From assembly GCA_964019135.1 (NCBI GenBank), contig OZ025252.1:11362823-11426822 (forward strand): a stretch of 64,000 nt of DNA. Direction: 5' to 3'. Shown here piece after piece: positions 1-64,000 of the stretch (positions within the stretch are counted from its first letter, which is position 1; each line of letters begins with the position of its first letter). A model generated the notes under the pieces. It worked only from the letters and a program-made list of their open reading frames with translations, did not search any database and was not told the origin of the DNA. The translations under genes and the position numbers were made by a program. The DNA comes from Arenicola marina. Its lineage: Eukaryota; Annelida; Polychaeta; Arenicolidae.

Positions 1-3000
1 GTTACAGGCTGACAGTTAATGTTGTCATGTGGCCGGCGTTACGGGCGGACTGTTAATGTTGTCATGTGGCCGGTGTTACAGGCGGACTGTTAATGTTGTC
101 ATGTGGCCGGTGTTACAGGCGGACAGTTAATGTTGTCATGTGGCCGGTGTTACAGGCTGACAGTTAATGTTGTCATGTGGCCGGCGTTACGGGCGGACTG
201 TTAATGTTGTCATGTGGCCGGCGTTACGGGCGGACTGTTAATGTTGTCATGTGGCCGGTGTTACAGGCGGACTGTTAAGGTTGTCATGTGGCCGGCGTTA
301 CGGGCTGACAGTTAATGTTGTCATGTGGCCGGTGTTACAGGCTGACAGTGACTGTTGTCATGTGGCCGGCGTTACGGGCGGACTGTTAATGTTGTCATGT
401 GGCCGGTGTTACAGGCGGACTGTTAATGTTGTCATGTGGCCGGTGTTACAGGAGGACAGTTAATGTTGTCATGTGGCCGGTGTTACAGGCTGACAGTTAA
501 TGTTGTCATGTGGCCGGCGTTACGGGCTGACAGTGAATGTTGTCATGTGGCCAGTGTTACAGGCTGACAGTTAATGTTGTCATGTGGCCGGCGTTACGGG
601 CGGACTGTTAATGTTGTCATGTGGCCGGTGTTACAGGCGGACTGTTAATGTTGTCATGTGGCCGGTGTTACAGGCGGACAGTTAATGTTGTCATGTGGCC
701 GGTGTTACAGGCGGACTGTTAATGTTGTCATGTGGCCGGCGTTACGGGCTGACAGTGAATGTTGTCATGTGGCCAGTGTTACAGGCTGACAGTTAATGTT
801 GTCATGTGGCCGGCGTTACGGGCGGACTGTTAATGTTGTCATGTGGCCGGTGTTACAGGCGGACAGTTAATGTTGTCATGTGGCCGGTGTTACAGGCGGA
901 CTGTTAATGTTGTCATGTGGCCAGTGTTACAGGCTGACAGTTAATGTTGTCATGTGGCCGGTGTTACAGGCGGACTGTTAATGTTGTCATGTGGCCGGTG
1001 TTACAGGCGGACTGTTAATGTTGTCATGTGGCCGGTGTTACAGGCGGACTGTTAATGTTGTCATGTGGCCGGTGTTACAGGCGGACAGTTAATGTTGTCA
1101 TGTGGCCAGTGTTACAGGCGGACAGTTAATGTTGTCATGTGGCCGGTGTTACAGGCGGACAGTTAATGTTGTCATGTGGCCGGCGTTACGGGCGGACTGT
1201 TAATGTTGTCATGTGGCCGGTGTTACAGGCGGACTGTTAATGTTGTCATGTGGCCGGTGTTACAGGCGGACTGTTAATGATGTCATGTGGCCAGTGTTAC
1301 AGGCTGACAGTTAATGTTGTCATGTGGCCGGCGTTACGGGCGGACTGTTAATGTTGTCATGTGGCCGGCGTTACAGGCGGACTGTTAATGATGTCATGTG
1401 GCCGGTGTTACAGGCGGACAGTTAATGTTGTCATGTGGCCGGTGTTACAGGCTGACAGTTAATGTTGTCATGTGGCCGGTGTTACAGGCGGACTGTTAAT
1501 GATGTCATGTGGCCGGTGTTACAGGCGGACAGTTAATGTTGTCATGTGGCCGGCGTTACGGGCGGACTGTTAATGTTGTCATGTGGCCGGTGTTACAGGC
1601 GGACTGTTAATGTTGTCATGTGGCCGGCGTTACGGGCGGACTGTTAATGTTGTCATGTGGCCGGCGTTACGGGCGGACTGTTAATGTTGTCATGTGGCCG
1701 GTGTTACAGGCGGACTGTTAAGGTTGTCATGTGGCCGGCGTTACGGGCTGACAGTTAATGTTGTCATGTGGCCGGTGTTACAGGCTGACAGTGACTGTTG
1801 TCATGTGGCCGGCGTTACGGGCGGACTGTTAATGTTGTCATGTGGCCGGTGTTACAGGCGGACTGTTAATGTTGTCATGTGGCCGGTGTTACAGGCGGAC
1901 AGTTAATGTTGTCATGTGGCCGGTGTTACAGGCTGACAGTTAATGTTGTCATGTGGCCGGCGTTACGGGCTGACAGTGAATGTTGTCATGTGGCCAGTGT
2001 TACAGGCTGACAGTTAATGTTGTCATGTGGCCGGCGTTACGGGCGGACTGTTAATGTTGTCATGTGGCCGGTGTTACAGGCGGACTGTTAATGTTGTCAT
2101 GTGGCCGGTGTTACAGGCGGACAGTTAATGTTGTCATGTGGCCGGTGTTACAGGCGGACTGTTAATGTTGTCATGTGGCCGGCGTTACGGGCTGACAGTG
2201 AATGTTGTCATGTGGCCAGTGTTACAGGCTGACAGTTAATGTTGTCATGTGGCCGGCGTTACGGGCGGACTGTTAATGTTGTCATGTGGCCGGTGTTACA
2301 GGCGGACAGTTAATGTTGTCATGTGGCCGGTGTTACAGGCGGACTGTTAATGTTGTCATGTGGCCAGTGTTACAGGCTGACAGTTAATGTTGTCATGTGG
2401 CCGGTGTTACAGGCGGACTGTTAATGTTGTCATGTGGCCGGTGTTACAGGCGGACTGTTAATGTTGTCATGTGGCCGGTGTTACAGGCGGACTGTTAATG
2501 TTGTCATGTGGCCGGTGTTACAGGCGGACAGTTAATGTTGTCATGTGGCCAGTGTTACAGGCGGACAGTTAATGTTGTCATGTGGCCGGTGTTACAGGCG
2601 GACAGTTAATGTTGTCATGTGGCCGGCGTTACGGGCGGACTGTTAATGTTGTCATGTGGCCGGTGTTACAGGCGGACTGTTAATGTTGTCATGTGGCCGG
2701 TGTTACAGGCGGACTGTTAATGATGTCATGTGGCCAGTGTTACAGGCTGACAGTTAATGTTGTCATGTGGCCGGCGTTACGGGCGGACTGTTAATGTTGT
2801 CATGTGGCCGGCGTTACAGGCGGACTGTTAATGATGTCATGTGGCCGGTGTTACAGGCGGACAGTTAATGTTGTCATGTGGCCGGTGTTACAGGCTGACA
2901 GTTAATGTTGTCATGTGGCCGGTGTTACAGGCGGACTGTTAATGATGTCATGTGGCCGGTGTTACAGGCGGACAGTTAATGTTGTCATGTGGCCGGCGTT

Positions 3001-3419
3001 ACGGGCGGACTGTTAATGTTGTCATGTGGCCGGTGTTACAGGCGGACTGTTAATGTTGTCATGTGGCCGGTGTTACAGGCGGACAGTTAATGTTGTCATG
3101 TGGCCGGTGTTACAGGCTGACAGTTAATGTTGTCATGTGGCCGGCGTTACGGGCGGACTGTTAATGTTGTCATGTGGCCGGCGTTACGGGCGGACTGTTA
3201 ATGTTGTCATGTGGCCGGTGTTACAGGCGGACTGTTAATGTTGTCATGTGGCCGGCGTTACGGGCGGACTGTTAATGTTGTCATGTGGCCGGTGTTACAG
3301 GCGGACTGTTAATGTTGTCATGTGGCCGGTGTTACAGGCGGACAGTTAATGTTGTCATGTGGCCGGTGTTACAGGCGGACTGTTAATGTTGTCATGTGGC
3401 CGGTGTTACAGGCGGACAG
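1..3419. repeat. 37-bp minisatellite, about 92 units, in ADSS intron
   Basis: Unit of 37 bp with core ttaatgttgtcatgtggccg followed by gygttacrggckgacwg. Runs from the window edge to the ADSS acceptor. Segments of 39 units recur: variants at 251-463 recur at 1694-1906 (offset 1443 = 39 x 37). Carries acceptor-like ttacag and gacag steps and a branch-point-like ttaat in nearly every unit. Confidence 0.97.
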
Positions 3420-3536
3420 TGACCTGATCCGGACTCGGGGCCATGAGTTCGGCACGACCACTGGACGTCCCAGGCGATGTGGCTGGCTGGACATCGTCAT
3501 GCTCAAATATGCTCACATGATAAACAGCTTCACAGG
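3420..3536 (+). CDS. ADSS: ADSS exon with [13 protein letters not shown] loop
   Basis: Encodes [19 protein letters not shown] and onward to NSFTG. The acceptor AG is at 3418-3419, inside the final unit of the 37-bp array; the exon begins with one base (T) completing a split glycine codon. The donor GTAAGT starts at 3537 and leaves GG, completed by A in the next exon. The Thr-Thr-Gly-Arg segment is the aspartate-binding loop in this family. Confidence 0.93.
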
Positions 3537-6500
3537 GTAAGTGGCTCGGTGTTTGTGCCCTGACCAGAGTCCGTTGCTATAGTAGGGTCCATGTTCCTGT
3601 GTGACGATGGCCTCGATCTATATCTAAATGTATCTTTCAGTTTTTTTAACAAAACTTGGATATGCTAATAAAATTAATCTGCGGTAAACGAATATCAAAT
3701 GCAAAATGTGTTTTATCTTTGACCATTAGCCTTGCTGCGGTGTGCACTTAGCGCATGCGCAGACTGGTGTACCCTTGGCGCATGCATGCGTGGACTGTGG
3801 TGTACGCTTAGCGCATGCGCAAGCTGTGGCGTACCCTTAGCGCATGCGCAATGCTGTTGCGTACCCTTGGCGCATGCGCAAGCTGTGGTGTGCCCTTGGC
3901 GCATGCGCAAGCTGTGGTGTGCCCTTGGCGCATGCGCAAGCTGTGGTGTGCCCTTGGCGCATGCGCAATGCTGTTGCGTACCCTTGGCGCATGCGCAAGC
4001 TGTGGTGTGCCCTTGGCGCATGCGCAAGCTGTGGCGTACCCTTAGCGCATGCGCAATGCTGTTGCGTACCCTTGGCGCATGCGCAAGCTGTGGTGTGCCC
4101 TTGGCGCATGCGCAAGCTGTGGTGTGCCCTTGGCGCATGCGCAAGCTGTGGCGTACCCTTAGCGCATGCGCAATGCTGTTGCGTACCCTTGGCGCATGCG
4201 CAAGCTGTGGTGTGCCCTTGGCGCATGCGCAAGCTGTGGCGTACCCTTAGCGCATGCGCAATGCTGTTGCGTACCCTTGGCGCATGCGCAAGCTGTGGTG
4301 TGCCCTTGGCGCATGCGCAAGCTGTGGTGTGCCCTTGGCGCATGCGCAAGCTGTGGCGTACCCTTAGCGCATGCGCAATGCTGTTGCGTACCCTTGGCGC
4401 ATGCGCAAGCTGTGGCGTACCCTTAGCGCATGCGCAATGCTGTTGCGTACCCTTGGCGCATGCGCAAGCTGTGGTGTGCCCTTGGCGCATGCGCAAGCTG
4501 TGGCGTACCCTTAGCGCATGCGCAATGCTGTTGCGTACCCTTGGCGCATGCGCAAGCTGTGGTGTGCCCTTGGCGCATGCGCAAGCTGTGGTGTGCCCTT
4601 GGCGCATGCGCAAGCTGTGGTGTGCCCTTGGCGCATGCGCAAGCTGTGGTGTGCCCTTAGCGCATGGGCAGGATGTGGTGTGCCCTTGGCGCATGCGTAC
4701 TCTGTGCTGTGCGGGCTGTGAATTGTCTCTCCTGTTTTTAGAATCGCGCTGACGAAGCTAGATATCCTGGATACTCTGGATCAGGTGAAGATCGGAGTTT
4801 CCTACACGAAGAACGGTGTGGAACTGGACCACTTTCCTGGTGGGTATGAAGTGCAGCGGGCCAGCGTCACTGGGGTCTGTCGAGTCGACTAGTGATATCT
4901 GTCGAGTCGACGGGTCTATTGAGTGGCTTGAGGTCATTGAGGTCTGCGCTTAATTTGTCTGTTTAACTGGCGGGGTCTGTTAATCAGTGGAATCTTCACT
5001 TACCGGGTCTGTTGAAGCACTGGTGTGTCACCGGTGTATCACTGGTGTATCACTGGTGTGTCGCTGGTGTATCACTGGTGTATCGCTGGTGTATCACTGG
5101 TGCGACTGGTGCGTCACTGGTGTGTCACTGGTGCGTCACTTGTTATCGCTGGTGTGTCCCTGGAGTTTGAGCTGCTGAGTCACTGTTCCGTTGATCCCCT
5201 CCAGCCTGTCAGGACGAGTTCCGTGATATCAAGGTGCAGTACCTGACGCTGCCAGGCTGGAAGGCCTCCACCGAGCAGGCCAGGACTCTAGCCGACCTGC
5301 CGCAGAACGCACGCAACTACGTCAGCAAGGTGGAGGAGCTGCTTGGAGTGCCAGGTCAGTCCCACGGGCAACCCCCCACCACTGCTCACGATCACCCCGC
5401 CCCTCACTCACCCCACCCCTCGCTAACCCCACCCCTCACTCACCCCACCCCTCGCCGTCACCCCACCCCTCACTCACCCAACCCCTCACTCACCCCACCC
5501 CTCACTCACCCCCCCCCCTCACTCACCCCACCCCTCGCTAACCCCACCCCTCACTCACCCCACCCCTCGCTCACCCCACCCCTCACTCACCCCACCCCTC
5601 ACTCACCCCGCCCCTCACTCACCCCACCCCTCGCTAACCCCACCCCTCACTCACCCCACCCCTCGCCGTCACCCCACCCCTCACTCACCCCACCCCTACC
5701 CCCCCCCCCGACCCCTCACTCACCCAACCCCTCACTCACCCCACCCCTCACTCACCCAACCCCTCCCCCCCCGACCCCTCACTCACCCCACCCCACCCCT
5801 CACTCACCCCACCCCTCACTCACCCCACCCCTCGCCGTCACCCCACCCCTCACTCACCCCACCCCTCACTCACCCCACCCCTCACTCACCCAACCCCTCC
5901 CCCCCCCCCCCCCCGACCCCTCACTAACCCAACCCCTCCCCCCCTCCGACCCCTCACTCACCCCACCCCTCACTCACCCAACCCCTCCCCCCGACCCCTC
6001 ACTCACCCCACCCCACCCCACCCCTCGCTCACCCCACCCCTCACTCACCCCACCCCTCACTCACCCCATCCCTCACCGCCACCCCACCAATCACGGTCAC
6101 CCCAACGCTCGCCGTCACCCCACCCCTCACGGTCACCCCACCCGTCACCGCACCCCTCACCGTCACCCCACCCTTCGCCGTCACCCCACCCCTCGCTCAC
6201 CCAAACCTACTTCAGGTGGCCGTCGATATGTGCATTCGCTATCGGTAACCTCGTTAAATAAATAAATATTATAAAAAATCGCTATCGGTAACCTCGTTAA
6301 ATAAATAAATATTATAAAAAATAAATAAATATTATAAAAAAAAACACCACACCTTCGCCGCGACCTCACCCCTCGCGGTCACCCCGCCGCTTACCCCGCC
6401 GCTCACCCCACCCCTCACTCCACCCCTCACGGTCACTTCACCCCTAGCCGCGATCCCACCCCTCACCGTCAGCTCTCGCCTCACTGTCACCCAACCCTCG

Positions 6501-7518
6501 CCGTCACCCCACCCCTCACGGTCACCCCACCCCTCACTAACTCCACCCCGCCCCTCACGGTCACTTCACCCCTAGCCGCGACCCCACCCCTCACCGTCAG
6601 CCCTCGCCTCACTGTCACCCAACCCTCGCCGTCACCCTACCCCTCGCCGTCACCCCACCCCTCACGGTCACCCCACCCCTCACTAACTCCACCCCGCCCC
6701 TCACGGTCACTTCACCCCTCGCCGCGACCCCACTCCTCACCGTCACCCAACCCCTCCCCGTCACCCCACCCCTCACGGTCTCCCCACCCCTTGCCGTCAC
6801 CCCACCCATCGCCGTCAGCCCACCCCTCACGGTCTCCCCACCCCTTGCCGTCACCCCACCCATCGCCGTCAGCCCACCCCTCACGGTCACCTCACCCCAC
6901 CCATCGCCGTCACCCCACCCCTCACGGTCACCCCACCCCTCACGGTCACTTGACCCCTCGCGGTCACCCCACCCCTCACCGTCACCCTACCCCTCCCCGT
7001 CACCCCACCCCTCACCGTCACCCCTCGCCTCACCGTCACCCCACCCCTCACCGCCACCCCACCCCTCGCCTCACCGTCACCCCACCCCTCACGATCACCT
7101 TACCCCTAACGGTCACCCCAACCCTCGCCGTCACCCCACCCCTCACGGCCACCCCACCCCTTGCCGTCACCCCACCCCTTGCCGTGAACCCCACCCCTCA
7201 CGGTCTCCCCATCCCTCACCGTCACCCTACCCCTCACGGTCTCCCCACCCGACCCCTCTACCTGATTCACTGTGTTTCAAGTTACACCGCGGCCTCTGCC
7301 GTTACCGATCAACAGACATCTACTTAAAGGTGAATGACGTGTTCTCCGACTTGACCAATGCAGTTCACGATAAATAATAAACCCTACCTTAACCTATGCA
7401 TATCAAAGTGAGTGATAGATTATCTATATCGGTGAATATCTCCACGTGTCCGTTCTTTCTTGCAGTGAAGTGGATTGGTGTTGGCAAGGAGCGGGAATCT
7501 ATCATCCAAGTCGCCTAG
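3420..7518 (+). CDS. ADSS: Adenylosuccinate synthetase, C-terminal part (four exons; 5' part outside window)
   Basis: Coding exons are 3420-3536, 4742-4839, 5205-5354 and 7466-7518, with GT-AG boundaries and matching phases throughout (418 coding bases, about 138 residues plus stop). The enzyme joins IMP and aspartate using GTP to make adenylosuccinate, the first committed step of AMP synthesis, in the cytosol. Recognised by the aspartate/IMP loop [14 protein letters not shown], the guanine-binding TKLD (ALTKLDILD), the TLPGW block and the C-terminal [14 protein letters not shown], which align in order with animal ADSS. Animal enzymes are about 450 residues, so roughly the last 30 percent is here; the P-loop and catalytic N-terminal part must lie left of the window. 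Every visible intron carries a tandem array. The next gene, NAA40, converges on it. Family assignment is firm; paralogue (ADSS1 or ADSS2 type) is not resolved. Confidence 0.95.
3735..4705. repeat. 29/30-bp minisatellite with GCGCATGCGC palindrome
   Basis: About 33 units mixing two forms: GCGCATGCGCAAGCTGTGG + tgtgcccttg (29 bp) and GCGCATGCGCAATGCTGTTG + cgtaccctta (30 bp). Lies inside the ADSS intron 3537-4741. The decamer resembles an NRF-1 site. Confidence 0.95.
4742..4839 (+). CDS. ADSS: ADSS exon with TKLD guanine-binding motif
   Basis: Encodes (G)[21 protein letters not shown] and on to DHFP. The acceptor is ctgtttttag ending at 4741 and the donor gtgggt starts at 4840. TKLD provides the Lys and Asp that read the GTP guanine in adenylosuccinate synthetases. 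Phase matches both neighbouring exons. Confidence 0.93.
5033..5160. repeat. 11-bp minisatellite
   Basis: Unit tggtgtatcac with variants tggtgtgtcgc and tggtgcgtcac, about 11 units, in the short ADSS intron 4840-5204. Confidence 0.85.
5205..5354 (+). CDS. ADSS: ADSS exon with TLPGW block
   Basis: Encodes [19 protein letters not shown] followed by [20 protein letters not shown] and ends at GVP(V). Acceptor cccctccag ends at 5204; donor gtcagt starts at 5355. An open frame continues past the donor to 6265, but only because the C-rich intron repeat lacks stops. Confidence 0.93.
5390..6230. repeat. C-rich 16-bp minisatellite
   Basis: Unit ccccacccctcactca with variants ccctcgct and pure C runs. 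Occupies the first part of the last ADSS intron. Nearly free of G on the + strand, so the opposite strand is G-run rich. Confidence 0.93.
6238..6345. repeat. Direct duplication with AT-rich tail
   Basis: A segment of about 42 bp, cgctatcggtaacctcgtta followed by aataaataaatattataaaa, occurs twice in tandem and the AT part a third time. It interrupts the C-rich repeats. The aataaataaa tail resembles the 3' end of a LINE or SINE, but no body is present. Confidence 0.7.
6350..7262. repeat. C-rich 17-18-bp minisatellite
   Basis: Units such as ccgtcaccccacccctca with cggtcacc and cgcgacc variants. Same C-rich character as 5390-6230 but a different consensus. The last 200 bp of the intron are unique. 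Confidence 0.9.
7466..7518 (+). CDS. ADSS: ADSS terminal coding exon
   Basis: Encodes [17 protein letters not shown] and stop TAG at 7516-7518. Acceptor ttctttcttgcag ends at 7465. The GVGKxRES segment is the guanine/ribose contact near the ADSS C-terminus. Vertebrate proteins end IQLF; here the end is IQVA. Confidence 0.94.
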
Positions 7519-8166
7519 CAACAGGAGGAGGACTTGCCACTCTCCCCACCCCTTGCCACCGTGCCACCACCCATGGTGACCCCCCCCCCCCCCCCCACCT
7601 ACCCCGGGAGGTGGCGGTGGATGGTTTATCACGTAGATAGTCAGCACCTTTGCCGAACACAGGAAGAAAACACTGTGCTGTGAGCACCCGGCCAGCCAGC
7701 CGCTTGTGGTGGGAGTGGATGCTCGTCAACCCGTCACCCCAATCTCACTGTCGACCACGCGGTACACTGCTCCAATACAGGCATTTACCTGTTTTCCTCG
7801 CGCACATTTCACTTTCCTTTTAGATGTGCCTTGTTTACCAGTGTGTCGAGGCGGATTAATATTTCGCGTGTGTTTTTTTTTTTGTGCTATAGAAGTTTGT
7901 TTTGACTTATTTTGACTCTTTGGCGTGAGGATGGGATCTCGACATGTGAAAATATTATCAGTGTGGTCTTTTTGAAGCCGTATTGGAATTGTAATCACTA
8001 ACACACCTACCTACATTATACGTACACTTAGAAATTTATAACCAGCTTCCGTTATTCCCGCCACATAGCTGTAATATTACAGGGGGCATAACATATTTCA
8101 TTAGGTATAACATACTCCCGGGTAATTTCAGGTAGTTAATTAATGAGGACGAGGAAAATCATTAGT
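7519..8166. other. ADSS 3' flank, unique sequence
   Basis: Begins with a run of C at about 7583. Otherwise unique sequence with T-rich stretches (about 7867-7880). No coding signal seen on either strand. Confidence 0.5.
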
Positions 8167-9085
8167 CCAGCACTAGTGTGGGCCCTCTATGTAGTGCTGG
8201 GGTGTGTCTGCCATGCGTCCAGCACTAGTGTGGGCCCTCTATGTAGTGCTGGGGTGTGTCAGCCATGCGTCCAGCACTAGTGTGGGCAATCTATGTAGTG
8301 CTGGGGTGTGTCTGCCATGCGTCCAGCACTAGTGTGGGCCCTCTATGTAGTGCTGGGGTGTGTCTGCCATGCGTCCAGCACTAGTGTGGGCCCTCTATGT
8401 AGTGCTGGGGTGTGTCTGCCATGCGTCCAGCACTAGTGTGGGCCCTCTATGTAGTGCTGGGGTGTGTCAACCATGCGTCCAGCACTAGTGTGGGCCCTCT
8501 ATGTAGTGCTGGGGTGTGTCTGCCATGCGTCCAGCACTAGTGTGGGCCCTCTATGTAGTGCTGGGGTGTGTCTGCCATGCGTCCAGCACTAGTGTGGGCC
8601 CTCTATGTAGTGCTGGGGCGTGTCAGCCTGCGTCCAGCACTAGTGTGGGCCCTCTATGTTGTGCTGGGGTGTGTCAGCCATGCGTCCAGCACTAGTGTGG
8701 GCCCTCCATGTAGTGCTGGGGTGTGTCTGCCATGGGTCCAGCACTAGTGTGGGCCCTCCATGTAGTGCTGGGGTGTGTCTGCCATGGGTTCAGCACTAGT
8801 GTGGGCCTTCTATGTAGTGCTGGGGCGTGTCAGCCTAGTCCAGCACTAGTGTGGGCCTTCTATGTAGTGCTGGGGCGTGTCAGCCTAGTCCAGCACTAGT
8901 GTGGGCCCTCCATGTAGTGCTGGGGTATGTCTGCCATGGGTCCAGCACTAGTGTGGGCCCTCTATGTAGTGCTGGGGTGTGTCTGCCATGGGTCCAGCAC
9001 TAGTGTGGGCCTTCTATGTAGTGCTGGGGTATGTCTGCCATGGGTCCAGCACTAATGTGGGCCCTCTATGTAGTGCTGGGGCGTC
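8167..9085. repeat. 52-bp minisatellite with a hairpin in each unit
   Basis: About 17-18 units. Each holds CCAGCACTA, then gtgtgggccctctatg, then TAGTGCTGG, which are inverted copies, followed by ggtgtgtctgccatgcg. Lies between the convergent ADSS and NAA40 genes, or in the ADSS 3' UTR if the 9477 signal is used. Confidence 0.95.
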
Positions 9086-10854: not shown

Positions 10855-11062
10855 TCAGTTGACAGCTGCGGTGGCGTTGGCGTTGCCATTAGTGACCCCA
10901 TTGGATGCTGGCTTGGTGACGTCAGCGGCTTGAGACGCGACCCGTGGCGCTACCTTCCGGTTGATGCCGACCGCTTTGCTGAGGATCTGGTAAGTGTAGC
11001 CATCCTCGTCAAACAACGCCTCCTCCATCGACTCCTCGGGACTGGTCTCATCCACCTCGTAC
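10855..11062 (-). CDS. NAA40: NAA40 terminal exon
   Basis: Encodes YEVDETSPEESMEEALFDED then GYTYQILSKAVG and a low-complexity tail rich in Ala, Asn and Val, ending at TGA (10855-10857). The YEVDETSP and YxILS parts match vertebrate FEIDDSSP and YEILS. Vertebrate tails are His/Cys-rich instead, so the last roughly 40 residues look lineage-specific. Confidence 0.92.
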
Positions 11063-20837: not shown

Positions 20838-20922
20838 TGCATGTAGGCCTATATAGTATGTAGGCCTATATAGTATGTATGCCTATATAGTATGTAGGCC
20901 TATATAGTATGTAGGCCTAGAA
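20838..20922. repeat. 17-bp repeat, five units
   Basis: Unit aggcctatatagtatgt. Followed by a short TA-rich stretch. Confidence 0.85.
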
Positions 20923-50168: not shown

Positions 50169-50194
50169 TATGGGCTCTAGGCTTTAGGCTTCTG

Positions 50195-50338
50195 CCTCCA
50201 TACTCCATGCTCCAGGTCCCAGGCTCCAGGCTCCGGGCTCCGGGCCCCGGTCTCCAGGCTCCAGGCTCCAGGCTCCGGGCTCTGGGCTCCGGGCTCCGGG
50301 CTCCGGGCTCCGGGCTCCAGGATGCGGGCTCTGGGATC
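50195..50338. repeat. 7-bp repeat
   Basis: Heptamer gctccgg / gctccag in long runs. Confidence 0.88.
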
Positions 50339-50858: not shown

Positions 50859-51421
50859 CGGCGTCGGCACAGTCTCCGTGGCGTCGGCACAGCCTCTACG
50901 GCGTCGGCACAGTCGCTGTGGCGTCGGTAGAGCCTCTGTGGCGTCGGCACAGTCTCTGTGGCGTCGGCACAGCCTTTGTGGCGTCGGCACAGCCTCTGTG
51001 GCGTCGGCGCAGTCTCTGTGGCGTCGGCACAGTCTCTGTGGCGTCGGCAGTCTCTGTGGCGTCGGCACAGCCTCTGTGGCGTTGGCACAGCCTCTGTGGC
51101 GTCGGCACAGTCTCTGTGGCATCGGCACAGCCTCTGTGGCGTCGGCACAGTCTCTGTGGCGTCGGCAGTCTCTGTGGCGTCGGCACAGCCTCTGTGGCGT
51201 CGGCACAGCCTCTGTGGCGTCGGCACAGTCTCTGTGGCATCGGCACAGCCTTTGTGGCGTCGGCACAGCCTCTGTGGCGTCGGCGCAGTCTCTGTGGCGT
51301 CGGCACAGTCTCTGTGGCGTCGGCAGTCTCTGTGGCGTCGGCACAGCCTCTGTGGCGTCGGCACAGCCTCTGTGGCATCGGCACAGCCTCTGTGGCGTCG
51401 GCACAGTCTCTGTGGCGTCAT
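50859..51421. repeat. 20-bp minisatellite, about 28 units
   Basis: Unit gcgtcggcacagcctctgtg. Occasional 15-bp units (loss of five bases) appear at a regular place in a repeated block: 51045, 51165, 51325. Confidence 0.96.
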
Positions 51422-52014: not shown

Positions 52015-52285
52015 CTGGATCAGTCGGGATGTGATCATGACTGGCTTCAAGTCGAGATGTGGTCATGACTAGTTTATGTCTGGTTCAGTCGGGATGTGGT
52101 CATGACTAGTTTATGTCTGGTTCAGTCGGGATGTAATCATGACTAGTTTATGTCTGGTTCAGTCGGGATGTGGTCATGACTAGTTTATGTCTGGTTCAGT
52201 CGGGATGTAATCATGACTACTTTATCTCTGGTTCAGTCGGGATGTGGTCATGACTACTTTATCTCTGGTTCAGTTGGGATGTGGC
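52015..52285. repeat. 37-bp minisatellite (third family), seven units
   Basis: Unit gtcgggatgtggtcatgact + agtttatgtctggttca. Confidence 0.94.
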
Positions 52286-53199: not shown

Positions 53200-54288
53200 T
53201 ATGGTGCCAGCGTTACGGCATGGTGCCGGTGTTACGGTATGATGCCAGCGTTAAGGTATGGTGCCATTGTTATGGTATGGTGCCAGTGCTACGGTATGGT
53301 GCCAGCGTTAAGGTATGGTGCCATTGTTACGGTATGGTGCCAGTGCTACGGTATGGTGCCAGCGTTAAGGTATGGTGCCATTGTTAGGGTATGGTGCCAG
53401 CGTTATGGCATGGTGCCAGTGTTACGGTATGGTGCCAGTGTTACGGTATGGTGCCAGTGTTACGGTATGGTGCCAGTATTAAGGTATGGTGCCATTGTTA
53501 CGGTATGGTGCCAGTGCTATGGTATGGTGCCAGCGTTAAGGTATGGTGCCATTGTTACGGTATGGTTCCAGCGTTACGGTATGGTGCCAGTGTTACGGTA
53601 TGGTGCCATTGTTACGGTATGGTGCCAGTGTTACGGTATGGTGCCAGTGTTACGGCATGGTGCAAGTGTCACGGCACGGTGCCATTGTTACGGTATGATA
53701 CCATCGTTACAGTACGTTGCCATCGTTATGGCATGGTGCCAGGGTTAAGGCATGGTGCCATCGTTACGGTATAGTGCCAGCGTACGGCATAGTGCCAGCG
53801 TTACGGTACGTTGCCATCGTTACGGTATGTTGCCAGCGTTACGGCATGGTGCCAGGGTTACGGCATGGTGCCAGGGTTACGGCATGGTGCCAGTGTTACG
53901 GTATGGTGCCAGTGTTACGGCATGGTGCCAGTGTTACGGTATAGTGCCAGTGTTACGGTATAGTGCCAGTGTTACGGTATGGTGCCAGCGTTACGGTACG
54001 TTGCCATCGTTACGGTATGTTGCCAGCGTTACGGCATGGTGCCAGGGTTACGGCATGGTGCCAGGGTTACGGCATGGTGCCAGTGTTACGGTATGGTGCC
54101 AGTGTTGCGGTATGGTGCCAGTGTTACGGCATGGTGCCAGGGTTACGGCATGGTGCCAGTGTTACGGTACGTTGCCAGTGTTACGGTATGGTGCCAGTGT
54201 TACGGCATGGTGGCAGTGTTACGGCATGGTGCCAGTGTTACGGCATGGTGCCCGTGTTACGGCATGGGTGCCAGCGTTACGGTGGCGT
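53200..54288. repeat. 19-bp minisatellite, about 57 units
   Basis: Unit ggtatggtgccagtgttac with gccagcgttaag and gccattgtta variants. A ten-unit block starting ggtacgttgccatcg at about 53803 recurs 190 bp later (10 x 19). Confidence 0.96.
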
Positions 54289-57235
54289 TCCGACTTACCA
54301 GGCCGCACAACCAACATCATGATGGGGTGAGTATTAAATTGCGAGACGGGTATCGTTTGATTTGTGGCTGGACATGCCGGCCTGGGGCGGGTGGAGTGTG
54401 TGCTGGTCCACTGGGGCAGCGCTTAGGATATAAGGTCAAACCAAATGAGGCGTGCTGGCCCCTCGGGCCATTGTACCTGTCAGGCGTTTAGCGCTGGCGT
54501 ATTGTGCTCCATTGGTATGGCCCACGTGTGGCTGCTGTGGTGGCCGGTCAGCGCCTGCCCAGGCCGGCGGCCCACACGGACGATGGTTCACTGGTCAATA
54601 TGACCTAGTTTCCTTTCTTTGCCTTCACCAAATCCCACCGACCGCCGCTTTTCGCGTCCCCTGGGTAGTCTGCCCGCTCACGGAATCGTTCCCCGCCCCG
54701 TGTTCGCCTTATTCCAGACGATGGCCTCATGCTCAAGTAAACCGGCATTTGCCCTCACTCTGCCTCCCCCCCCCCCCCTATTCAGGGTATTATTCCGGGT
54801 CGACGTCTCTCCGTGGCTGATGGCTATCGACTGAACAAGGCACGCTGGTCGTAGGACCCGGGGCCGGGCACTCCACCGCACCACGTGCCGGGGCTCCGGC
54901 ACCCAGACCCTTCACATTACTGCCGCCGCGTTGCGAGACTTGCGTACGAGAACGGGAGAAGTGCCTTCCTAGTGGTCGATTTACCACTAAACTTTCTAAA
55001 TATATAACGTGTATTGGGATATCAACCCACATAACCTACCAGGCATTGTTTATATAGTACTGTCCCACTTTTCCTTTCTGTGTTCTTATCTTGACAATTA
55101 ATCGCCAATATAAGCCATTAATCTCCCTGCAAAATTAATATATGTTGCGAGTAAATATAGCACACATTGTGAATTTGGCATGCAAATGTTTTCGTGGCGT
55201 CTATTATAGACTCGCCAATTCCTGACAACACCAATGTACAGACGAGCCCAGTGGTTGTGTGACGTCACTTCCGGTTAATACAGCGGTTAGACCCGTTTAT
55301 CCGAGGTTGACTCGCACCCACACACATAGATTATACACGTTAGGAATCAACAAATGATACTGGATGATCATACAGCCTGTAAAACACACACCAAGCATTA
55401 GTACAAGCGGAAAACTATGCCGCCTACCTTAAGTACATGTGTAGTCGAGCCTCGCACGTAAATAAACCATATTGGCTGGACGAGTTCGGTCTGTATGCGA
55501 GCTGTGTCGTAGGGTGCGACACGGGATGCGCCATATGAACTACACGCAAGTCTAGCGACTCATTCACTCAGTCTCTAAGCGTGAAATCAGATTAAATGTA
55601 TATGAGAACACTCCACACTAGCTACACCAGTAGCAAGTCGTTCGTCTCATATAGTGATGAACTGTTCGTGGGTACACCGTACAAGCGACGTCACAACTCG
55701 TTCAGTATGTTATCATCTATATGTATGCACCAGACTGAGTACACCCGATGAACTCGTTCAATCTGTTGCCACAAATTCAAGAACTCTATATAATGCACCG
55801 TGCTGGCTACACTAGATAAACGCGCTCAGTATATTAGCATGTTGTCAGGAACACTACATGAATACACCATCCTAGCTACAACAGATGAACTCGTTCGGTC
55901 AGTTATCATGTAGTCAGGAACACTATATGAACACACCGTGTTGCTTTCAGGCAGATCATGGTGATTGCAGGCAACAACTCGTTTGGTAAATTACCATACA
56001 CCCTCGCACGGTAGTTTAGCGCCATATTTATGACGTAATTATCTCATTTGTGGCACATTCCCATAGGCTTTCCCGCGCTGTCTCCATCAGACCCGAGCAC
56101 GCTCACCAAGGCAGCATCATTACCTTGATTGAATGCTTGGTTATATTCTCTCTCGCACCGGCATCATAGCAGCTGGCAGCGCCATACGGGCTAAAGGTAA
56201 CTTCTGTCATACAACAAGAACGATGCCCGCACGTTCAAAAACTTCAGTGTACATGTATGTACGATGGAGACAATACAATATAGACCGCTTTCAGTGAAAT
56301 TGTGTACAACTGCGTGATCTGTTATTTCCCCGACCTGACCACAGTCTGTCAGCTCTCAATTATGTGACAGAGTGCCACGTGTGGGTATGTGTTGCGTTGC
56401 CTGTCACTCGCACACACCAATGATAAGGACGTGTACGCTCCGTCAATACCATGCATTCAATAATGTGGTTATGGATTTGGTGATGCGGCGGTAACAGCCG
56501 ACTTCACGACTTCAGACACACACCCACTGGTATTAGATAAACGCTTGACTGATGAAAGGTGTGCAACTTTGGGTTTAGTCAAGCCCACGCTATCAGCCCG
56601 TGCGACTGCCGGTATGCACAGCCCATATACCTAAGTCGTATACCCCCAACGCACCGGTGAAAGTACTACATAAGAGATTTGTAATGTATACGCGGGACTG
56701 CATCACTCGCATTGCTGGGCAGTAAAGATATTTTTTTCCGTAATTTAGTGGCGGAGCAGGTGGTGCCAAGAGGCCTACAGCGGTGCGCGGTGCGCGGTGT
56801 CGCCGGGTGGACAACCCAGCCGCTACCTGTGAAGTAGTTCATCTACTGTACCCAGCTTGGTTTTGTCATGTGTATTTCCAGATGAGTAACGTTTATATTT
56901 AGCGAAAGTCAGTCCGTATCTGTGTTCCCGCGTAATAGCGTGTAATACATGATACCATCATATACCTCGTGCATCTAGGGGATGGATGGGTGGGTTGGGG
57001 TTGGGTGGGCTGGGGTGGGGTGGGTGGAGTGGGGTGGGGTCAGCGGATTTTCCATCGCGTCCTGACGGCTTAGCGACACATTATTATGTATTCGCAATCC
57101 AATCAGCGTTTCCTTTCTGGCCTGCGTTCTGTATGCTCTGTATATAATAGCTTTTCTTGGGTCACATATGTCAGACACAACCAGAGTTAGCTGCGACAGG
57201 ACGTTTCTTGACCAGTACCTTTGTCGAATACGTCA
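54289..57235. other. Longest repeat-poor stretch of the right half
   Basis: About 2.9 kb of unique DNA. A C run at 54768-54778. In 55600-55960 the phrase gatgaactcgttc recurs irregularly with acaccgt and aggaacacta, a decayed repeat. At 56985-57045 there is a GGGTGGG/GGGGT cluster. No exon or RNA gene could be supported. Confidence 0.45.
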
Positions 57236-58712
57236 ACAGTTTTAGGTGAGGGTGGGCGATGTTGTAATACAGGTTTAGGAGAGGGTGGGCAATGTTGTAA
57301 TACAGGTTTAGGTGAGGGTGGGCGATGTTGTAATACAGGTTTAGGTGAGGGTGGGCAATGTTGTAATACAGGTTTAGGTGAGGGTGGGCGATGTTGTAAT
57401 ACAGGTTTAGGTGAGGGTGGGCGATGTTATAATACAGGTTTAAGTGAGGGTGGGCAATGTTGTAATACAGGTTTAGGTGAGGGTGGGCGATGTTGTAATA
57501 CAGGTTTAGGTGAGGGTGGGCGATGTTGTAATACAGGTTTAGGTGAGGGTGGGCGATGTTGTAATACAGGTTTACGTGAGGGTGGGCAATGTTGTAATAC
57601 AGGTTTAGGTGAGGGTGGGCGATGTTGTAATACAGGTTTAGGTGAGGGTGGGCGATGTTGTAATACAGGTTTAAGTGAGGGTGGGCGATGTTGTAATACA
57701 GGTTTAGGTGAGGGTGGGCGATGTTGTAATACAGGTTTAGGTGAGGGTGGGCAATGTTGTAATACAAGTTTTATGTGAGGGTGGGCGATGTTGTAATACG
57801 GGTTTAGGTGAGGGTGGGCGATGTTGTAATACAGGTTTAAGTGAGGGTGGGCGATGTTGTAATACAGGTTTAGGTGATGGTGGGCGATGTTGTAATACAG
57901 GTTTAGGTGAGGGTGGGCAATATTGTAATACAGGTTTAGGTGAGGGTGGGCGATGTTGTAATACAGGTTTAGGTGAGGGTGGGCGATGTTGTAATACAGG
58001 TTTAGGTGAGGGTGGGCGATGTTGTAATACAGGTTTAGGTGAGGGTGGGCGATGTTGTAATACAGGTTTAGGTGAGAGTGGGCGATGTTGTAATACAGGT
58101 TTAGGTGAGGGTGGGCGATGTTGTAATACAGGTTTAGGTGAGGGTGGGCAATGTTGTAATACAGGTTTAGGTGAGGGTGGGCGATGTTGTAATACAGGTT
58201 TAGGTGAGGGTGGGCGATGTTGTAATACAGGTTTAGGTGAGGGTGGGCGATGTTGTAATACAGGTTTAGGTGAGGGTGGGCGATGTTGTAATACAGGTTT
58301 AGGTGAGGGTGGGCGATGTTGTAATACAGGTTTAGGTGAGGGTGGGCGATGTTGTAATACAGGTTTAGGTGAGGGTGGGCGATGTTGTAATACAGGTTTA
58401 GGTGAGGGTGGGCGATGTTGTAATACAGGTTTAGGTGAGGGTGGGCGATGTTGTAATACAGGTTTACGTAAAGGTGGGCGATGTTGTAATACAGGTTTAG
58501 GTGAGGGTGGGCGATGTTGTAATACAGGTTTAGGTGAGGGTGGGCGATGTTGTAATACAGGTTTAGGTGAGGGTGGGCGATGTTGTAATACAGGTTTAGG
58601 TGAGGGTGGGCTATGTTGTAGTACAGGTTTAGGCGAGGGTGGGCTATGTTGTAGTACAGGTTTAGGTGAGGGTGGGCTATGTTGTAGTACAGGTTTAGGC
58701 AAGGGTGGGCGG
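57236..58712. repeat. 33-bp minisatellite (second family), about 45 units
   Basis: Unit ttaggtgagggtgggcgatg + ttgtaatacaggt. Open in all frames on both strands because the period is a multiple of three. Each unit has tacag followed by ttag-gtgagg. The last four units change to ctatgttgtagtacagg. Confidence 0.97.
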
Positions 58713-60234: not shown

Positions 60235-61535
60235 TTACTATGGTAGTGTTGGTGGTCATGGTGGCTGTAGTGGCTGTAGTGCATGGTGGTGGCTGTGGTG
60301 GCTATGGTGGTGGCTGAGGCTGCTGTGGCGGTGGCTGAGGTGGCTGTGATGGTGGCTATGGTGGTGGCTGTGATGGTGGCTGTGGTTGTGGTGGTGGTGG
60401 TGCCTGGAGGTGGCTGAAGTTAATATGGTGGTGGTCATGGTGGCTGTAGTGGCTGTAGTGCATGGTGGTGGCTGTGGTGGCTGTGACTGTGGTGGTGGCT
60501 ATGGTGGTGGCTGTGGTGACTGTGGTGGTGGTGGTGGCTGTGATGACTGTGGTGGGTGTGGTGGTGGCTGTGGTGGTGGCCGTGGTGGTGGCTGTGATGG
60601 TGGCTGTGGTAGTGGTTGTGGTGGTGGCTGTGGTGGTGGCCGTGATGGTGGCTGTGGCTGTGGTTGTGGTGGTGGCTGTGGTGGTGGCCGTGCTGGTGGC
60701 TGTGGTTGTGGCTGTGATGGTGGCTGTGGTGGTGGTGGTGGCTGTGGTGGTAGCTGTGGTGGTGGTGGTGGCTGTGGTGGCTGTGATGGTTGCTGTGGTG
60801 GTGGTGGTGGCTGTGGTGGTAGCTGTGGTGGCTGTGGTGGTGGCTGTGGTTGTGGTGGTGGCTATGGTGGTGGCCGTGGTGGTGGCTGTGGTGGTGCTGG
60901 TGGCTGTGGTGGTGGCTGTGGTGGCCGTGGTGGTGGCCGTGGTAGTGGCTGTGGCTGTGGTGGTGGCTGTGGTGGCCGTGGTGGTGGCCGTGGTGGTGGC
61001 TGTGGCTGTGGTGGTGGTGGTTGCTGTGGTGGCCGTGGTAGTGGCTGTGGCTGTGGTGGTGGTGGTTGCTGTGGTGGCCGTGGTAGTGGCTGTGGCTGTG
61101 GTGGTGGTGGTTGCTGTGGTGGCCGTGGTAGTGGCTGTGGCTGTGGTGGCCGTGGTGGTGGCCGTGGTGGTGGCTGTGGCCGTGGTAGTGGCTGTGGCTG
61201 TGGTGGTGGTGGTTGCTGTGGTGGCCGTGGTAGTGGCTGTGGCTATGGTGGCCGTGGTGGTGGCCGTGGTGGTGGCTGTGGTGGCCGTGGTGGTGGCCGT
61301 GGTAGTGGCTGTGGCTGTGGTGGTGGCTGTGGTGGCCGTGGTGGTGGCCGTGGCTATGGTGGCCGTGGTGGTGGCCGTGGCTGTGGTGGCCGTGGTGGTG
61401 GCCGTGGTAGTGGCTGTGGCTGTGGTGGTGGCTGTGGTGGCCGTGGTGGTGGCCGTGGCTATGGTGGCCGTGGTGGTGGCCGTGGTGGTGGCTGTGGCTG
61501 TGGTGGTGGCTGTGCTGGTGGCTGTGCTGGGTGAG
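60235..61535. repeat. GGT/GGC triplet-based repeat
   Basis: Built of ggtggtggc, tgtggtggc and cgtggtggt words in steps of three, with longer repeated blocks such as ggtagtggctgtggctgtgg. All frames open; false proteins are poly-Gly/Cys, poly-Val/Ala or, in antisense, poly-Thr/Ala. Confidence 0.95.
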
Positions 61536-62022
61536 GTGGAGGTGTTGTTACAGGCAGTCTGAATGGCAGGCGGCAGGGACACGTAATGCCAGGTATTGAT
61601 ACACCTTGTTTCGCCCGGGGACACGCCCAACAAACTGGTTCCCTGCTATGTATTCCTTAATTACCGCGTTGCTTGCTCTACGTTGCGATGGCGTTAGCGT
61701 CTTTGGAGAACCCCAGGGCCTATTTACCTCGCCCCCCCCCCACCCCTTTACCCCCGCGGGACGCCGGTCGGTGGGTGAGCAGGGTCACCAGCCTGCCCTG
61801 CCCCACGCCGTCACTGGGCCAGCCTCTAAACCATGTCTTGTTTTCTTTATCTGGCACTGTGTTATTGCTCGGGGAATCTCCCCATATGTCGCCACGGCTA
61901 CTATATTACTACTCCGGACCAAAGCAACATTCACTCTGTAAGTTAAGCCGTTGGCCATTTGCAACCCCCACGCCCCTCCTCCCTCCCCATACATGTCAGC
62001 GTGCAAACACATGTTTTTACAT
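61536..62022. other. Unique spacer
   Basis: No feature recognised. Confidence 0.4.
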
Positions 62023-62485
62023 ACCTGACCCACACGTTATACATGCCTGACCCACACGTTATACATGCCTGACCCACACGTTAGACATGCCTGGCCCACA
62101 CGTCATACATGCCTGACCCACACGTTATACATGCCTGACCCACACGTTATACATGCCTGACCCACACGTCATACATGCCTGACGCACACGTCATACATGC
62201 CTGACCGACACGTCATACATGCCTGACCCACACGTCATACATGCCTGGCTCACGCGTCATACATGCCTGACCCACACGTTATACATGCCTGACCCACACG
62301 TTATACATGCCTGACCCACACGTTATACATGTCTGACCCACGTTATGCATGCCTGACCCGCACGTTATACATGCCTGACCCACACGTTATACATGCCTGA
62401 CCCACACGTCATACATGCCTGACCCACACGTTATACATGCCTGACCCACACGTTATACATGCCTGACCCACACGTCATACACAAT
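62023..62485. repeat. 22-bp minisatellite, about 21 units
   Basis: Unit cacgttatacatgcctgacc + ca, with cacgtcatac variants. Confidence 0.96.
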
Positions 62486-63699
62486 TGTAAAGTTCTGCCT
62501 AAAGTCAAGGTCGTTGAAGCTTTGGCAGCAGCCTCTGGCGGCGACCCAGTCACTTCCGGTTTCTCCTGGATCGCATGTGTGACGTCACAACAGCCACAGG
62601 CTGCTACAAGTGCGTCGCTGCGGTAGTGTTCAGAGATGTGTGGCCGGGTGGTGCATGGCGGTGGTTGGGGGTGCGGGCTGCGGGCACAGCTGGGGTGGAG
62701 ATGGGAGAGGGGCCACAACCCACGGCTGATGGGGCGGAGAGGGGGGAGGGGGGTCGGCTAAGAGAGGGTGACAGGGGAAGAGAAGTGTAACGTCCTGGGG
62801 CTATTGGCCACTTAAGATAAAACGTGTTGAGCGGCAGGGCGAGCACCCCCCCCCACCCCCCTCTCAAACACGGCGAGCACCCCCCCCCCCACCCCCCACC
62901 CCATCTCAAGAAGGGCCATGAGGTGGCTACCACTCTGGATGTGATTGGGGCATGAGAGGGCTGACAACTGAACGTACTTGGCAGTTTACGGAGTCTGGCT
63001 CGAGTTGGGCAGACCTCGCGAGCCCCTCTACCTTCGAGCAGCTTGGAGTACCAGATGACGTGTAAAGGTTTTACTTGGCCAAGTGGCATCTCTTCATCGC
63101 AATCATTCACAGCTCGGGCTAGAATTTATGCCATGCTTCTTATTTGCCCAGGAACCCGGATTTGTGAATATCCAATACTTAGTTTAATAGTTAGTGTGAT
63201 GTTATTTTGTCCTTATTGAAGGCATTGCACGCTTGCCAGGCCACACGGAGTCGCTTGAACCATGCGGTGAATATTGTCGAGTAAGTAAGCGATTATGTGA
63301 CTGTTCTCAGCTTTTCGGTTATCCACATATATAGCATCTTTGTGAAGTATCCCAATCCGGAGCATTGGTAGCACGCACGCCATGTCGCCCTGTAATCAGC
63401 TGCTGTGATCTCGAGTGGGACGGTCAAGGTGGTGTGGGGGTGTGGTTGATGGATGGGTCTGCACGCGGTGCCCCTTGCCCTTGGAGGGGCACTCCCCCCA
63501 GCCCTGTGCCTGTGAGGCACCCACGTCTTGTCCCTGGGTCTCGGTCCATGACCCATAAAGACGAATTACAGCAGCATACTTATGTCTATAAAGCTACTTT
63601 GCGTGCCCAGGGGACAGCCGAATACCCAGCACGGTAAAGAGATACAAAATATACGGTACAAAATGGCTTACTGCATAGAGGGAATGATAATAGAGGACC
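62486..63699. other. Unique DNA with one unassigned open stretch
   Basis: On the - strand at about 62960-63125 an open stretch reads LGQVKPLHVIWYSKLLEGRG and on, with balanced composition. It could be an exon of an unknown gene, but no family match or clear splice pair was found. C runs at 62847 and 62881. Confidence 0.3.
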
Positions 63700-64000
63700 G
63701 GCTAAACGGTGGCTTGGTAAAGGAGTGTGTGGTAAAGGAGGGTCTGGTAAATGAGGGTGTGGTAAGGGAGGGTGTGGTAAAGGAGGGTCTAGTAACGGAG
63801 GGTCTGGTAAAAGAGGGTGTGGTAAATGAGGGTGTGGTAAAGGAGGGTCTGGTAAATGAGGGTGTGGTAAGGGAGGGTGTGGTAAAGGAGGGTGTGGTAA
63901 AGGAGGGTATGGTAAATGAGGGTGTGGTAAGGGAGGGTGTGGTAAAGGAGGGTGTGGTAAAGGAGGGTATGGTAAAGGAGGGTCTGGTAAATGAGGGTCT
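63700..64000. repeat. 15-bp minisatellite running off the window
   Basis: Unit ggtaaaggagggtgt with ggtaaatgagggtct variants; about 20 units visible. The right end is outside. Confidence 0.95.

What the first reader, a model, noticed from the sequence alone, without database searches (positions are those of the whole stretch)
1..64000. More than 30 unrelated minisatellite families fill over half of a gene-bearing window
By my tally about 36 kb is tandem arrays with different units (7, 10, 11, 15-23, 25, 28-30, 33, 37, 40-42, 49, 52, 55 bp). Three separate families share the 37-bp period and two share 33 bp without sequence similarity. Such variety inside introns of housekeeping genes implies either a genome-wide burst of array formation or a subtelomeric-type location.
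Basis: partly seen in the sequence, partly recalled or inferred. Interest (0 to 1): 0.75.

Follow-up and report, generated by a model that had tools for sequence, protein, structure and literature searches.

The report
Worm genome rich in private minisatellites
This stretch of what looks like an annelid worm chromosome is more than half short tandem repeats, almost every array built from its own unrelated unit, and sampling suggests that about 40% of the whole genome is like this, so it may be a good place to learn how such repeats are born.

Summary
Tandem arrays cover 57.0% of the window; shuffled DNA gives 0-29 bp. There are 37 families, none of whose 666 pairs is more alike than shuffled units.

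The window is not special. It lies at 11.36-11.43 Mb of a 49.9 Mb scaffold, so it is not subtelomeric. In 51 stretches sampled elsewhere on 18 large scaffolds, a mean of 42% (95% CI 31-54%) is array. With TRF settings published for an earthworm (2.65% minisatellite, 9.84% all tandem repeats), this genome gives 31.6% and 41.5%.

The arrays look private. Five units searched through 867 Mb at up to 3 mismatches matched on one strand only, every listed match at one locus. No k-mer is clearly shared among 130 families.

Copies are interleaved variants with multi-unit block duplications (22 of 36 arrays), as unequal exchange or templated block duplication would give.

My reading: continuing local birth of minisatellites from arbitrary, somewhat GC-rich sequence, followed by block turnover, throughout an annelid genome. 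The cause of the high density is unknown; a single 'burst' is not shown.

The parts
1..3417 (.). 37-bp array, 92.4 copies, runs on upstream of the window
   Evidence: TRF; 91 one-strand matches in the genome, all here; 30-copy block repeated 39 units on
3734..4712 (.). 29-bp array (also read as 88 and 117 bp)
   Evidence: TRF
5018..5185 (.). 11-bp array (also 22, 33 and 64 bp)
   Evidence: TRF
5392..7250 (.). degenerate C-rich 16-18-bp array, 71% matches
   Evidence: TRF
8165..9081 (.). 52-bp array
   Evidence: TRF
10858..11079 (-). ORF, probable last exon of NAA40
   Evidence: recalled ending only; no credible PDB match, no Pfam match
11822..14533 (.). 18-bp array, 151.5 copies, between the NAA40 ORFs
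   Evidence: TRF; 111 one-strand matches to the doubled unit, the 100 listed all here
15127..15324 (-). NAA40 exon (N-alpha-acetyltransferase 40)
   Evidence: PDB 4u9v E=1.9e-16
15795..16017 (.). 49-bp array
   Evidence: TRF
16280..16810 (.). 33-bp array, 98% matches
   Evidence: TRF
20228..20338 (.). 10/20/30-bp degenerate array
   Evidence: TRF
20841..20919 (.). 17-bp array, 4.6 copies
   Evidence: TRF
22355..24846 (.). 17-bp array, 145 copies
   Evidence: TRF; 12-copy block repeated
24853..26810 (.). 29-bp array, 67.5 copies
   Evidence: TRF
27438..27667 (.). 40-bp array
   Evidence: TRF
27718..27851 (.). 21-bp array
   Evidence: TRF
27878..28114 (.). 23-bp array
   Evidence: TRF
28391..28579 (.). 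32/92-bp array
   Evidence: TRF
28725..33625 (.). 28-bp array with 21-, 35- and 75-bp variants, about 162 copies
   Evidence: TRF; 15-copy block repeated
33916..33972 (.). 21-bp short duplication, 100% in its core
   Evidence: TRF
34264..34325 (.). 32-bp duplication, 1.9 copies
   Evidence: TRF
34926..36734 (+). large coding exon of a sodium/calcium exchanger (start Met chosen by eye in the frame 34758-36734; exact exon ends not determined); no array base
   Evidence: PDB 8jp0 E=2e-204; three Pfam domains
36922..37043 (.). 22-bp array
   Evidence: TRF
38002..38639 (.). 55-bp array
   Evidence: TRF
38817..38894 (.). 5/10/30-bp array
   Evidence: TRF
39426..39512 (.). 21-bp array, 4.1 copies, 100%
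   Evidence: TRF
39652..39775 (.). 17-bp array
   Evidence: TRF
40423..40971 (.). 37-bp array, unrelated to the one at 1-3417
   Evidence: TRF; similarity 0.12
41457..44525 (.). 25-bp array, 122.6 copies
   Evidence: TRF
44641..45095 (.). 44/90-bp array
   Evidence: TRF
45277..49242 (.). 41-bp array, 96.9 copies
   Evidence: TRF; 88 one-strand matches in the genome, all here
49712..50163 (.). 28-bp array
   Evidence: TRF
50173..50341 (.). 7/14/21-bp array
   Evidence: TRF
50852..51419 (.). 20-bp array (also 118 bp)
   Evidence: TRF
52015..52284 (.). 37-bp array, third unrelated family of this period
   Evidence: TRF; similarity 0.14 to each of the others
53200..54283 (.). 19-bp array, 57 copies
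   Evidence: TRF
56978..57040 (.). 15/19-bp G-rich array
   Evidence: TRF
57236..58711 (.). 33-bp array, 44.7 copies
   Evidence: TRF; 43 one-strand matches in the genome, all here
60259..61539 (.). degenerate 9/12/39/51-bp array
   Evidence: TRF
62018..62481 (.). 22-bp array
   Evidence: TRF
63715..64000 (.). 15-bp array, runs on downstream of the window
   Evidence: TRF

Best explanation
The window is an ordinary piece of a genome, most likely an annelid's, in which roughly two fifths of the DNA is tandem array, mostly minisatellite. Shown: the arrays occur on all sampled large scaffolds, are not confined to chromosome ends, are sequence-unrelated, private to one locus in 5 of 5 families tested (as far as the match lists go), GC-rich and strand-skewed, absent from the two coding exons examined, and built of interleaved unit variants with multi-unit blocks copied within the array in 22 of 36 arrays. 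Inferred: each array starts as a chance local tandem duplication of whatever sequence lies there, probably at short microhomologies by replication slippage or templated end joining. It then grows, mixes and shrinks by unequal exchange, gene conversion or templated block duplication until it decays. The genome is near a balance of birth and death with an unusually high birth rate, weak removal, or both. GC-biased conversion in the arrays may explain why they are richer in GC than the DNA between them (by 5 to 14 points in the sample sets). No function is proposed: the arrays look like neutral products of a mutational process.
For: Genome-wide: mean 42.4% (CI 30.8-54.1) over 51 stretches, 44.5% (CI 30.5-59.0) over the 37 outside the systematic C5 series; a 12-mer recurrence measure gives 39.8% against 1.2% shuffled. 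Private: 91/0, 88/0, 111/0, 43/0 and 2275/0 forward/reverse matches in 867 Mb, all listed ones at one locus each (the lists are cut at 100 for the 111 and the 2275). 97 units all against all: of the 5 pairs at 0.7 or more, four are pieces of one array and one is G-rich low complexity. Turnover: the longest repeated block beats all 20 permutations in 22 of 36 arrays, up to 38 copies (2,242 bp) and 56 copies (1,400 bp); identical neighbours are in excess (z>2) in only 7 of 36, and in deficit (z<-2) in 1 (200 permutations; 6 and 2 with 20 permutations). Composition: unit GC 0.557 against 0.459 in length-matched random segments; |GC skew| 0.349 against 0.256 when GC-matched, 129 of 130 units. Singleton variants run 283 S-to-W to 133 W-to-S, common ones 92 to 72 (Fisher p=0.009). 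Perfect two-copy duplications with units >=16 bp outside larger arrays: 6 (of 46 found with units >=8 bp), all six with 1-13 bp of overlap (no chance control was run).
Against: Units are not random draws: they are GC-rich, skewed and CpG-poor (o/e 0.71 against 0.92, or 0.85 when GC-matched), so sequence does matter to birth or survival. With four word lengths tried this is not convincing, and it touches few families. At similarity 0.5 or more there are 15 unit pairs against 1 shuffled; beyond array pieces these are mostly G-rich low-complexity units. Hairpin potential is near neutral (mean z -0.15, SE 0.10) but 11 of 122 units have z<-2 against 2 with z>2. Block duplication was not above all permutations in 14 of 36 arrays. 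Array edges are not generally more divergent than middles, which simple unequal crossing-over predicts: both edges in 9, one in 17, neither in 9 of 35 untruncated arrays (counted by hand). The polarity of common variants is ambiguous, so the biased-conversion reading is weak. The six small duplications are few, and one unit (L029) looks tRNA-derived. One assembly, no reads, no second individual or relative: neither array lengths nor rates could be verified. The cause of a high rate was not found.
Confidence: 0.65

Rival explanations
1. A single past burst: one episode (a transient mutator or demographic event) produced most arrays, which now only decay.
For: Arrays of comparable kind occur on many scaffolds; many long arrays remain above 90% identity (median 0.91 of 54).
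Against: Within-array identity spreads from 0.83 to 0.97; degenerate arrays (5392-7250, 71% matches) occur in the same window as nearly perfect ones (16280-16810, 98%; 39426-39512, 100%); perfect two-copy duplications are present. Concerted evolution can mimic youth, so this is not excluded.
Confidence: 0.14
2. Mobile elements, for example rolling-circle Helitrons with internal tandem repeats, seeded the arrays.
For: The genome holds many Helitrons with long open frames: 24 of 53 Helitron_like_N matches lie in frames of 2013-2345 aa (one with a stop), many of them with a PIF1 helicase match nearby in a frame of the same length. That Helitrons can carry or generate tandem repeats is recalled knowledge.
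Against: Arrays carried by a transposon should recur at many loci and in both orientations; 5 of 5 units tested match on one strand only, with all listed matches at one locus, and 97 sampled units show no family shared between loci beyond low-complexity ones. Only a mechanism that amplifies the sequence at the insertion site would escape this. Array flanks were not compared, and no Helitron was looked for beside the arrays.
Confidence: 0.07
3. Assembly artefact: collapsed or chimaeric long-read assembly inflates arrays.
For: 200 N occur in 2 of the 18 C5 stretches, so some repeats may have broken the assembly.
Against: Many arrays are shorter than a typical long read and lie between intact exons; private units with many variant copies are hard to produce by mis-joining (inference). 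Artefacts could alter lengths rather than create families. The sequencing technology is not known here.
Confidence: 0.05
4. Subtelomeric or centromeric satellite territory.
For: Satellite-like density; some sampled stretches are 100% array; the first 10 kb of C5 is 45% array.
Against: Position 11.36 Mb of 49.9 Mb, 0.3% array at 0.5 Mb of the same scaffold; single-copy-type genes inside; similar density on other scaffolds; no family shared between scaffolds in the sample beyond weak low-complexity resemblance.
Confidence: 0.03

Closest known systems
Minisatellites / VNTRs of vertebrates
   Same: Units mostly 10-100 bp, GC-rich and strand-skewed, interleaved variant copies, internal block duplications; the likeness to human loci is recalled.
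   Different: About 42% of the genome in tandem arrays, against 0.5-3% tandem repeats given as typical for eukaryotes in PMC5241972 (passages seen); no clear shared core motif; spread through chromosome interiors, whereas human VNTR polymorphism is enriched in subtelomeres (title of PMC7608644, search listing only).
Atlantic cod tandem-repeat-rich genome (PMC5241972)
   Same: Genome-wide excess of tandem repeats, also around genes.
   Different: 10.9% of the cod assembly, by far the highest density among about 70 genomes compared there (passages seen), measured with other settings; here about four times that, nearly all in units of 10 bp or more (units under 10 bp 0.09%).
Earthworm Amynthas aspergillum T2T genome (PMC12130307)
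   Same: An annelid; tandem repeats measured with TRF 2 7 7 80 10 50 500 (and MISA).
   Different: Minisatellites 2.65%, satellites 3.44%, microsatellites 3.75%, together 9.84% (passages seen), against 31.6%, 9.8%, 0.09% and 41.5% here with the same TRF settings on 51 stretches.
Amphioxus 'mirage' minisatellites (PMC3087553)
   Same: Minisatellites in ordinary genes, unit lengths differing between genes (10-72 and about 150-160 bp), concerted evolution within clusters (passages seen).
   Different: Reported gene by gene and defined by spanning exon-intron borders; here a genome-scale property, and border-spanning units were not looked for.

Membership tests
Minisatellite (VNTR) | Unit about 10-100 bp in head-to-tail arrays | tested here: met
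   Median period 35 bp, 5-95% quantiles 17-111 bp, 130 families selected at period 12-210.
Minisatellite (VNTR) | Interspersed variant repeats with internal rearrangement | tested here: met
   Variants are reused, e.g. 217 copies from 13 variants; block duplication beyond all 20 permutations in 22 of 36 arrays, not in 14.
Minisatellite (VNTR) | Length polymorphism between alleles | not testable with these tools
   No reads or second haplotype.
Satellite DNA (centromeric or subtelomeric) | One family shared over many loci or chromosomes | tested here: not met
   5 of 5 units matched one strand only, listed matches at one locus each; no shared family among 97 units beyond low complexity.
Satellite DNA (centromeric or subtelomeric) | Chromosome-end or centromere position | tested here: inconclusive
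   Chromosome end excluded: 11.36 Mb into a 49.9 Mb scaffold. The centromere position is unknown.
Transposon-borne tandem repeat | Same array at dispersed loci with shared flanks | tested here: not met
   Dispersed copies not found for 5 of 5 units; flanks were not compared.
Amphioxus mirage | Unit spans an exon-intron border | not tested
   Exon borders were not annotated.

The most novel reading that the evidence does not exclude
An animal genome in a steady state of tandem-duplication hypermutation: nearly any sequence can nucleate a minisatellite. Of the order of 2x10^5 arrays, most with a unit of their own, make up about 40% of 867 Mb (extrapolated from about 33 distinct arrays of >=100 bp in the 140 kb of C5 samples away from the window, counted by hand). 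This would be a lineage-wide mutator, whether repair-based (polymerase-theta-like or slippage) or driven by an active rolling-circle transposon machinery acting in trans.
Probability: 0.3. Interest if true: 0.85.

Novelty: new variant of a known kind. Interest (0 to 1): 0.62.

Why it matters
Tandem repeats usually make up a few per cent of a genome (PMC5241972, passages), and how a minisatellite is born is rarely seen. A genome with so many independent arrays of many periods and degrees of decay would allow birth, growth, composition bias and death to be measured statistically. It may explain a GC content high for an annelid (about 49% in the C5 samples; annelid mean 39.6% in PMC11371463, passages seen), shows how introns can fill without transposon families, and warns annotators that repeat masking by family libraries may miss private arrays.

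Tried and rejected
Shared core motif: by eye several units seemed to share TTACAGG or CACTGG. The first k-mer test over 130 families (30 shuffles) found nothing above the largest null value (best z 3.2, 3.8, 4.5, 5.6 for k=5-8; null maxima 3.8, 5.0, 5.7, 5.7). A recheck with 100 shuffles gave 10, 30, 4 and 5 null sets at or above the observed maximum; ACACTGGC, in 5 of 130 families, is the best 8-mer. I treat this as borderline and not as a core. Hairpin-driven expansion: mean z near zero. Single-unit slippage, which would give runs of identical neighbours: z>2 in 7 of 36. The mean z printed is meaningless (one array had zero variance over its 20 permutations), and that array is probably among the 6 counted there. 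The edge line is faulty (two true values were added as one, so its 'both' is always 0); the 9/17/9 split in this report is counted by hand and agrees with its 26 and 9. CpG decay inside arrays: C-to-T type singletons are about as common at CpG (2.9e-3, n=25) as elsewhere (2.8e-3, n=155), although units are CpG-poor. Loss of a flap-nuclease gene such as FEN1: XPG_I has 4 matches, as many as the animal set I recall (FEN1, EXO1, GEN1, XPG), none identified singly. PIF1: 131 matches, many in long frames that also carry a Helitron domain, so uninformative. Rfam and tRNA scans of the window: nothing. Pfam on 10 window ORFs of the many listed: only the exchanger exon matched, and even the NAA40 exon did not. 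The NAA40 last-exon ORF had no credible PDB match and is called by its recalled ending. Naming the species: the mitochondrial gene order fits an annelid (recalled); paper searches for an annelid of this size found none. Literature on minisatellite-dominated genomes: in ten searches no listed title or abstract start reports such a genome for an annelid; the library lacks most subscription papers.

Full report
WHAT WAS CHECKED. Tandem Repeats Finder on the window lists 83 rows. Their union is 36,503 bp, 57.0%, in 39 blocks, and shuffled copies of the window give 0-29 bp. A non-redundant set has 37 families of at least 60 bp. Among their 666 pairs the best similarity (0.47) is below the best of shuffled units (0.53), and the families that share 37- or 33-bp periods are unrelated.

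WHERE THE WINDOW LIES. It is positions 11,362,823-11,426,822 of contig C5 (49,925,089 bp) of an 867 Mb assembly in 762 contigs. Eighteen large scaffolds sum to 839.7 Mb. The mitochondrial contig reads with the invertebrate code, in the order nad4L, nad4, large-subunit rRNA, nad1, nad3, nad2, cox1, cox2, cox3, nad6, cob, atp6, nad5. The genes were named by eye from their translations, except cox1 by Pfam and the rRNA by Rfam. I recognise this as the usual annelid order (recalled); the species was not identified. Sequence around the window is similar: the two 10-kb stretches on each side are 49-83% array.

GENES. A 659-codon open frame at 34,758-36,734 (+) matches sodium/calcium exchanger 1 (8jp0, E=2e-204) and has Na_Ca_ex, Na_Ca_ex_C and Calx-beta domains. 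A second exchanger match lies at C5:11,484,739-11,485,086, same strand. The window from 36,735 on, 15,199 of 27,266 bp array, therefore most likely lies inside this gene; exons in between were not sought. An open frame at 15,127-15,324 (-) matches N-alpha-acetyltransferase 40 (E=1.9e-16), and the one at 10,858-11,079 (-) looks like its C-terminal exon (recalled ending, no database support); 2,712 of the 4,047 bp between them are one 18-bp array. Neither the exchanger coding stretch from its likely start at 34,926 (chosen by eye) nor the NAA40 exon holds any array base.

GENOME-WIDE DENSITY. I sampled 14 stretches of 10 kb along C5 away from the window (positions chosen by hand), 17 of 2 kb on the 17 other large scaffolds (by hand, 20 asked) and 20 of 0.8 kb at positions from a random generator. 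Array fractions are 36.7%, 43.1% and 45.7%; the unweighted mean of all 51 is 42.4% (95% CI 30.8-54.1); 20 of 51 are at least half array and 10 have none. Left out of this mean are the window, its four flanking stretches (67%) and seven loci fetched around a dispersed repeat (15%). With the TRF settings of the A. aspergillum paper the mean is 31.6% minisatellite (CI 21.2-42.6), 9.8% longer units and 0.09% microsatellite, 41.5% in all (CI 30.2-53.5); length-weighted values are 33.5, 4.3 and 0.1%. A measure without alignment (12-mers recurring within 300 bp) gives 39.8% against 1.2% in shuffles. The window (57.0%) is denser than the mean but well inside the range. No other eukaryotic genome could be run through the same script here; the comparison rests on published figures.

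PRIVATE FAMILIES. Whole-genome pattern searches with up to 3 mismatches: 37-bp unit 91 matches, 41-bp unit 88, doubled 18-bp unit 111, 33-bp unit 43, all on one strand; every listed match is at the window array or its continuation just upstream of the window (100 of the 111 are listed). A 55-bp unit from C17 has 2,275 matches on one strand; the 100 listed lie in 6 kb of C17, about 70 kb from the stretch it was taken from, which suggests one very long array. More divergent relatives would not be seen. All-against-all comparison of 97 sampled units (window, C5, other-scaffold and repeat-anchored loci) finds 5 pairs at or above 0.7: four are pieces of one array, split by my stretch borders, by TRF or read twice, and one is a G-rich low-complexity pair. 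At 0.5 or above there are 15 pairs against 1 in shuffles, mostly further array pieces and G-rich units.

COMPOSITION AND MOTIFS. Array units are GC-rich, GC-skewed and CpG-poor compared with length- or GC-matched random segments between arrays. No 5- to 8-mer is clearly shared by more families than in shuffled sets; the best 7-mer and 8-mer are borderline (4 and 5 of 100 shuffled sets reach them; ACACTGGC in 5 of 130 families). New (singleton) variants imply an equilibrium GC near 0.40, yet array bases sit at 0.52-0.59 in the sample sets. Commoner variants are relatively richer in AT-to-GC changes (p=0.009), which fits GC-biased conversion but also a bias in polarity.

TURNOVER. Arrays re-use few unit variants in interleaved order. 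Among the 36 arrays with at least 25 copies (two longer ones cut to 230 copies), the longest repeated block of consecutive variants exceeds all 20 permutations in 22 and reaches 2.2 kb, whereas identical neighbours are in excess in only 7. Block duplication or unequal exchange is favoured over single-unit slippage as the main mode. Array edges are not generally more divergent than middles (both edges in 9, one in 17, neither in 9 of 35 untruncated arrays, counted by hand), so a strict crossing-over model with decaying ends is not supported.

BIRTH. Six perfect two-copy duplications with units of 16-89 bp lie outside larger arrays in 317 kb, each with 1-13 bp of extra overlap; 40 more have units of 8-11 bp. 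This fits microhomology-mediated tandem duplication, but no chance control was run, the number is small and one unit looks tRNA-derived.

CONCLUSION. The finding is real and belongs to the genome, not to the window. The most likely explanation is continuing local birth of minisatellites with block turnover. The cause of the high density, its distribution among species and polymorphism are open.

Noticed in passing
G000 (whole genome), e.g. C1:60088176-60091007, C2:3461819-3464662: Many Helitrons with long frames: 53 Helitron_like_N matches, 24 of them in frames of 2013-2345 aa (one with a stop), many with a PIF1 helicase match nearby in a frame of the same length, which suggests recent activity.
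   Followed up: partly
window 11130-11387: A dispersed repeat of about 260 bp, with about 39 other copies scored at 88-93% identity on many scaffolds (a lower bound).
   Followed up: partly
L029 3896-4014: A perfect two-copy duplication of a 58-bp unit that looks like a tRNA-derived SINE head.
   Followed up: no
G000:C17:1727306 to about 1802000: A 55-bp unit with 2,275 one-strand matches, possibly one array of about 125 kb.
   Followed up: partly
window 1-3417: The 37-bp array repeats a block of 30 unit copies 39 units (1,443 bp) further on.
   Followed up: yes
window 53200, L023 5816, L025 7520, L033 2465, L041 1673: Five otherwise different units share the 8-mer ACACTGGC, a borderline excess.
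   Followed up: partly
G000:C1:5300890-5300925: A TTAGGG run in the interior of C1, while C2 begins with telomere repeat.
   Followed up: no
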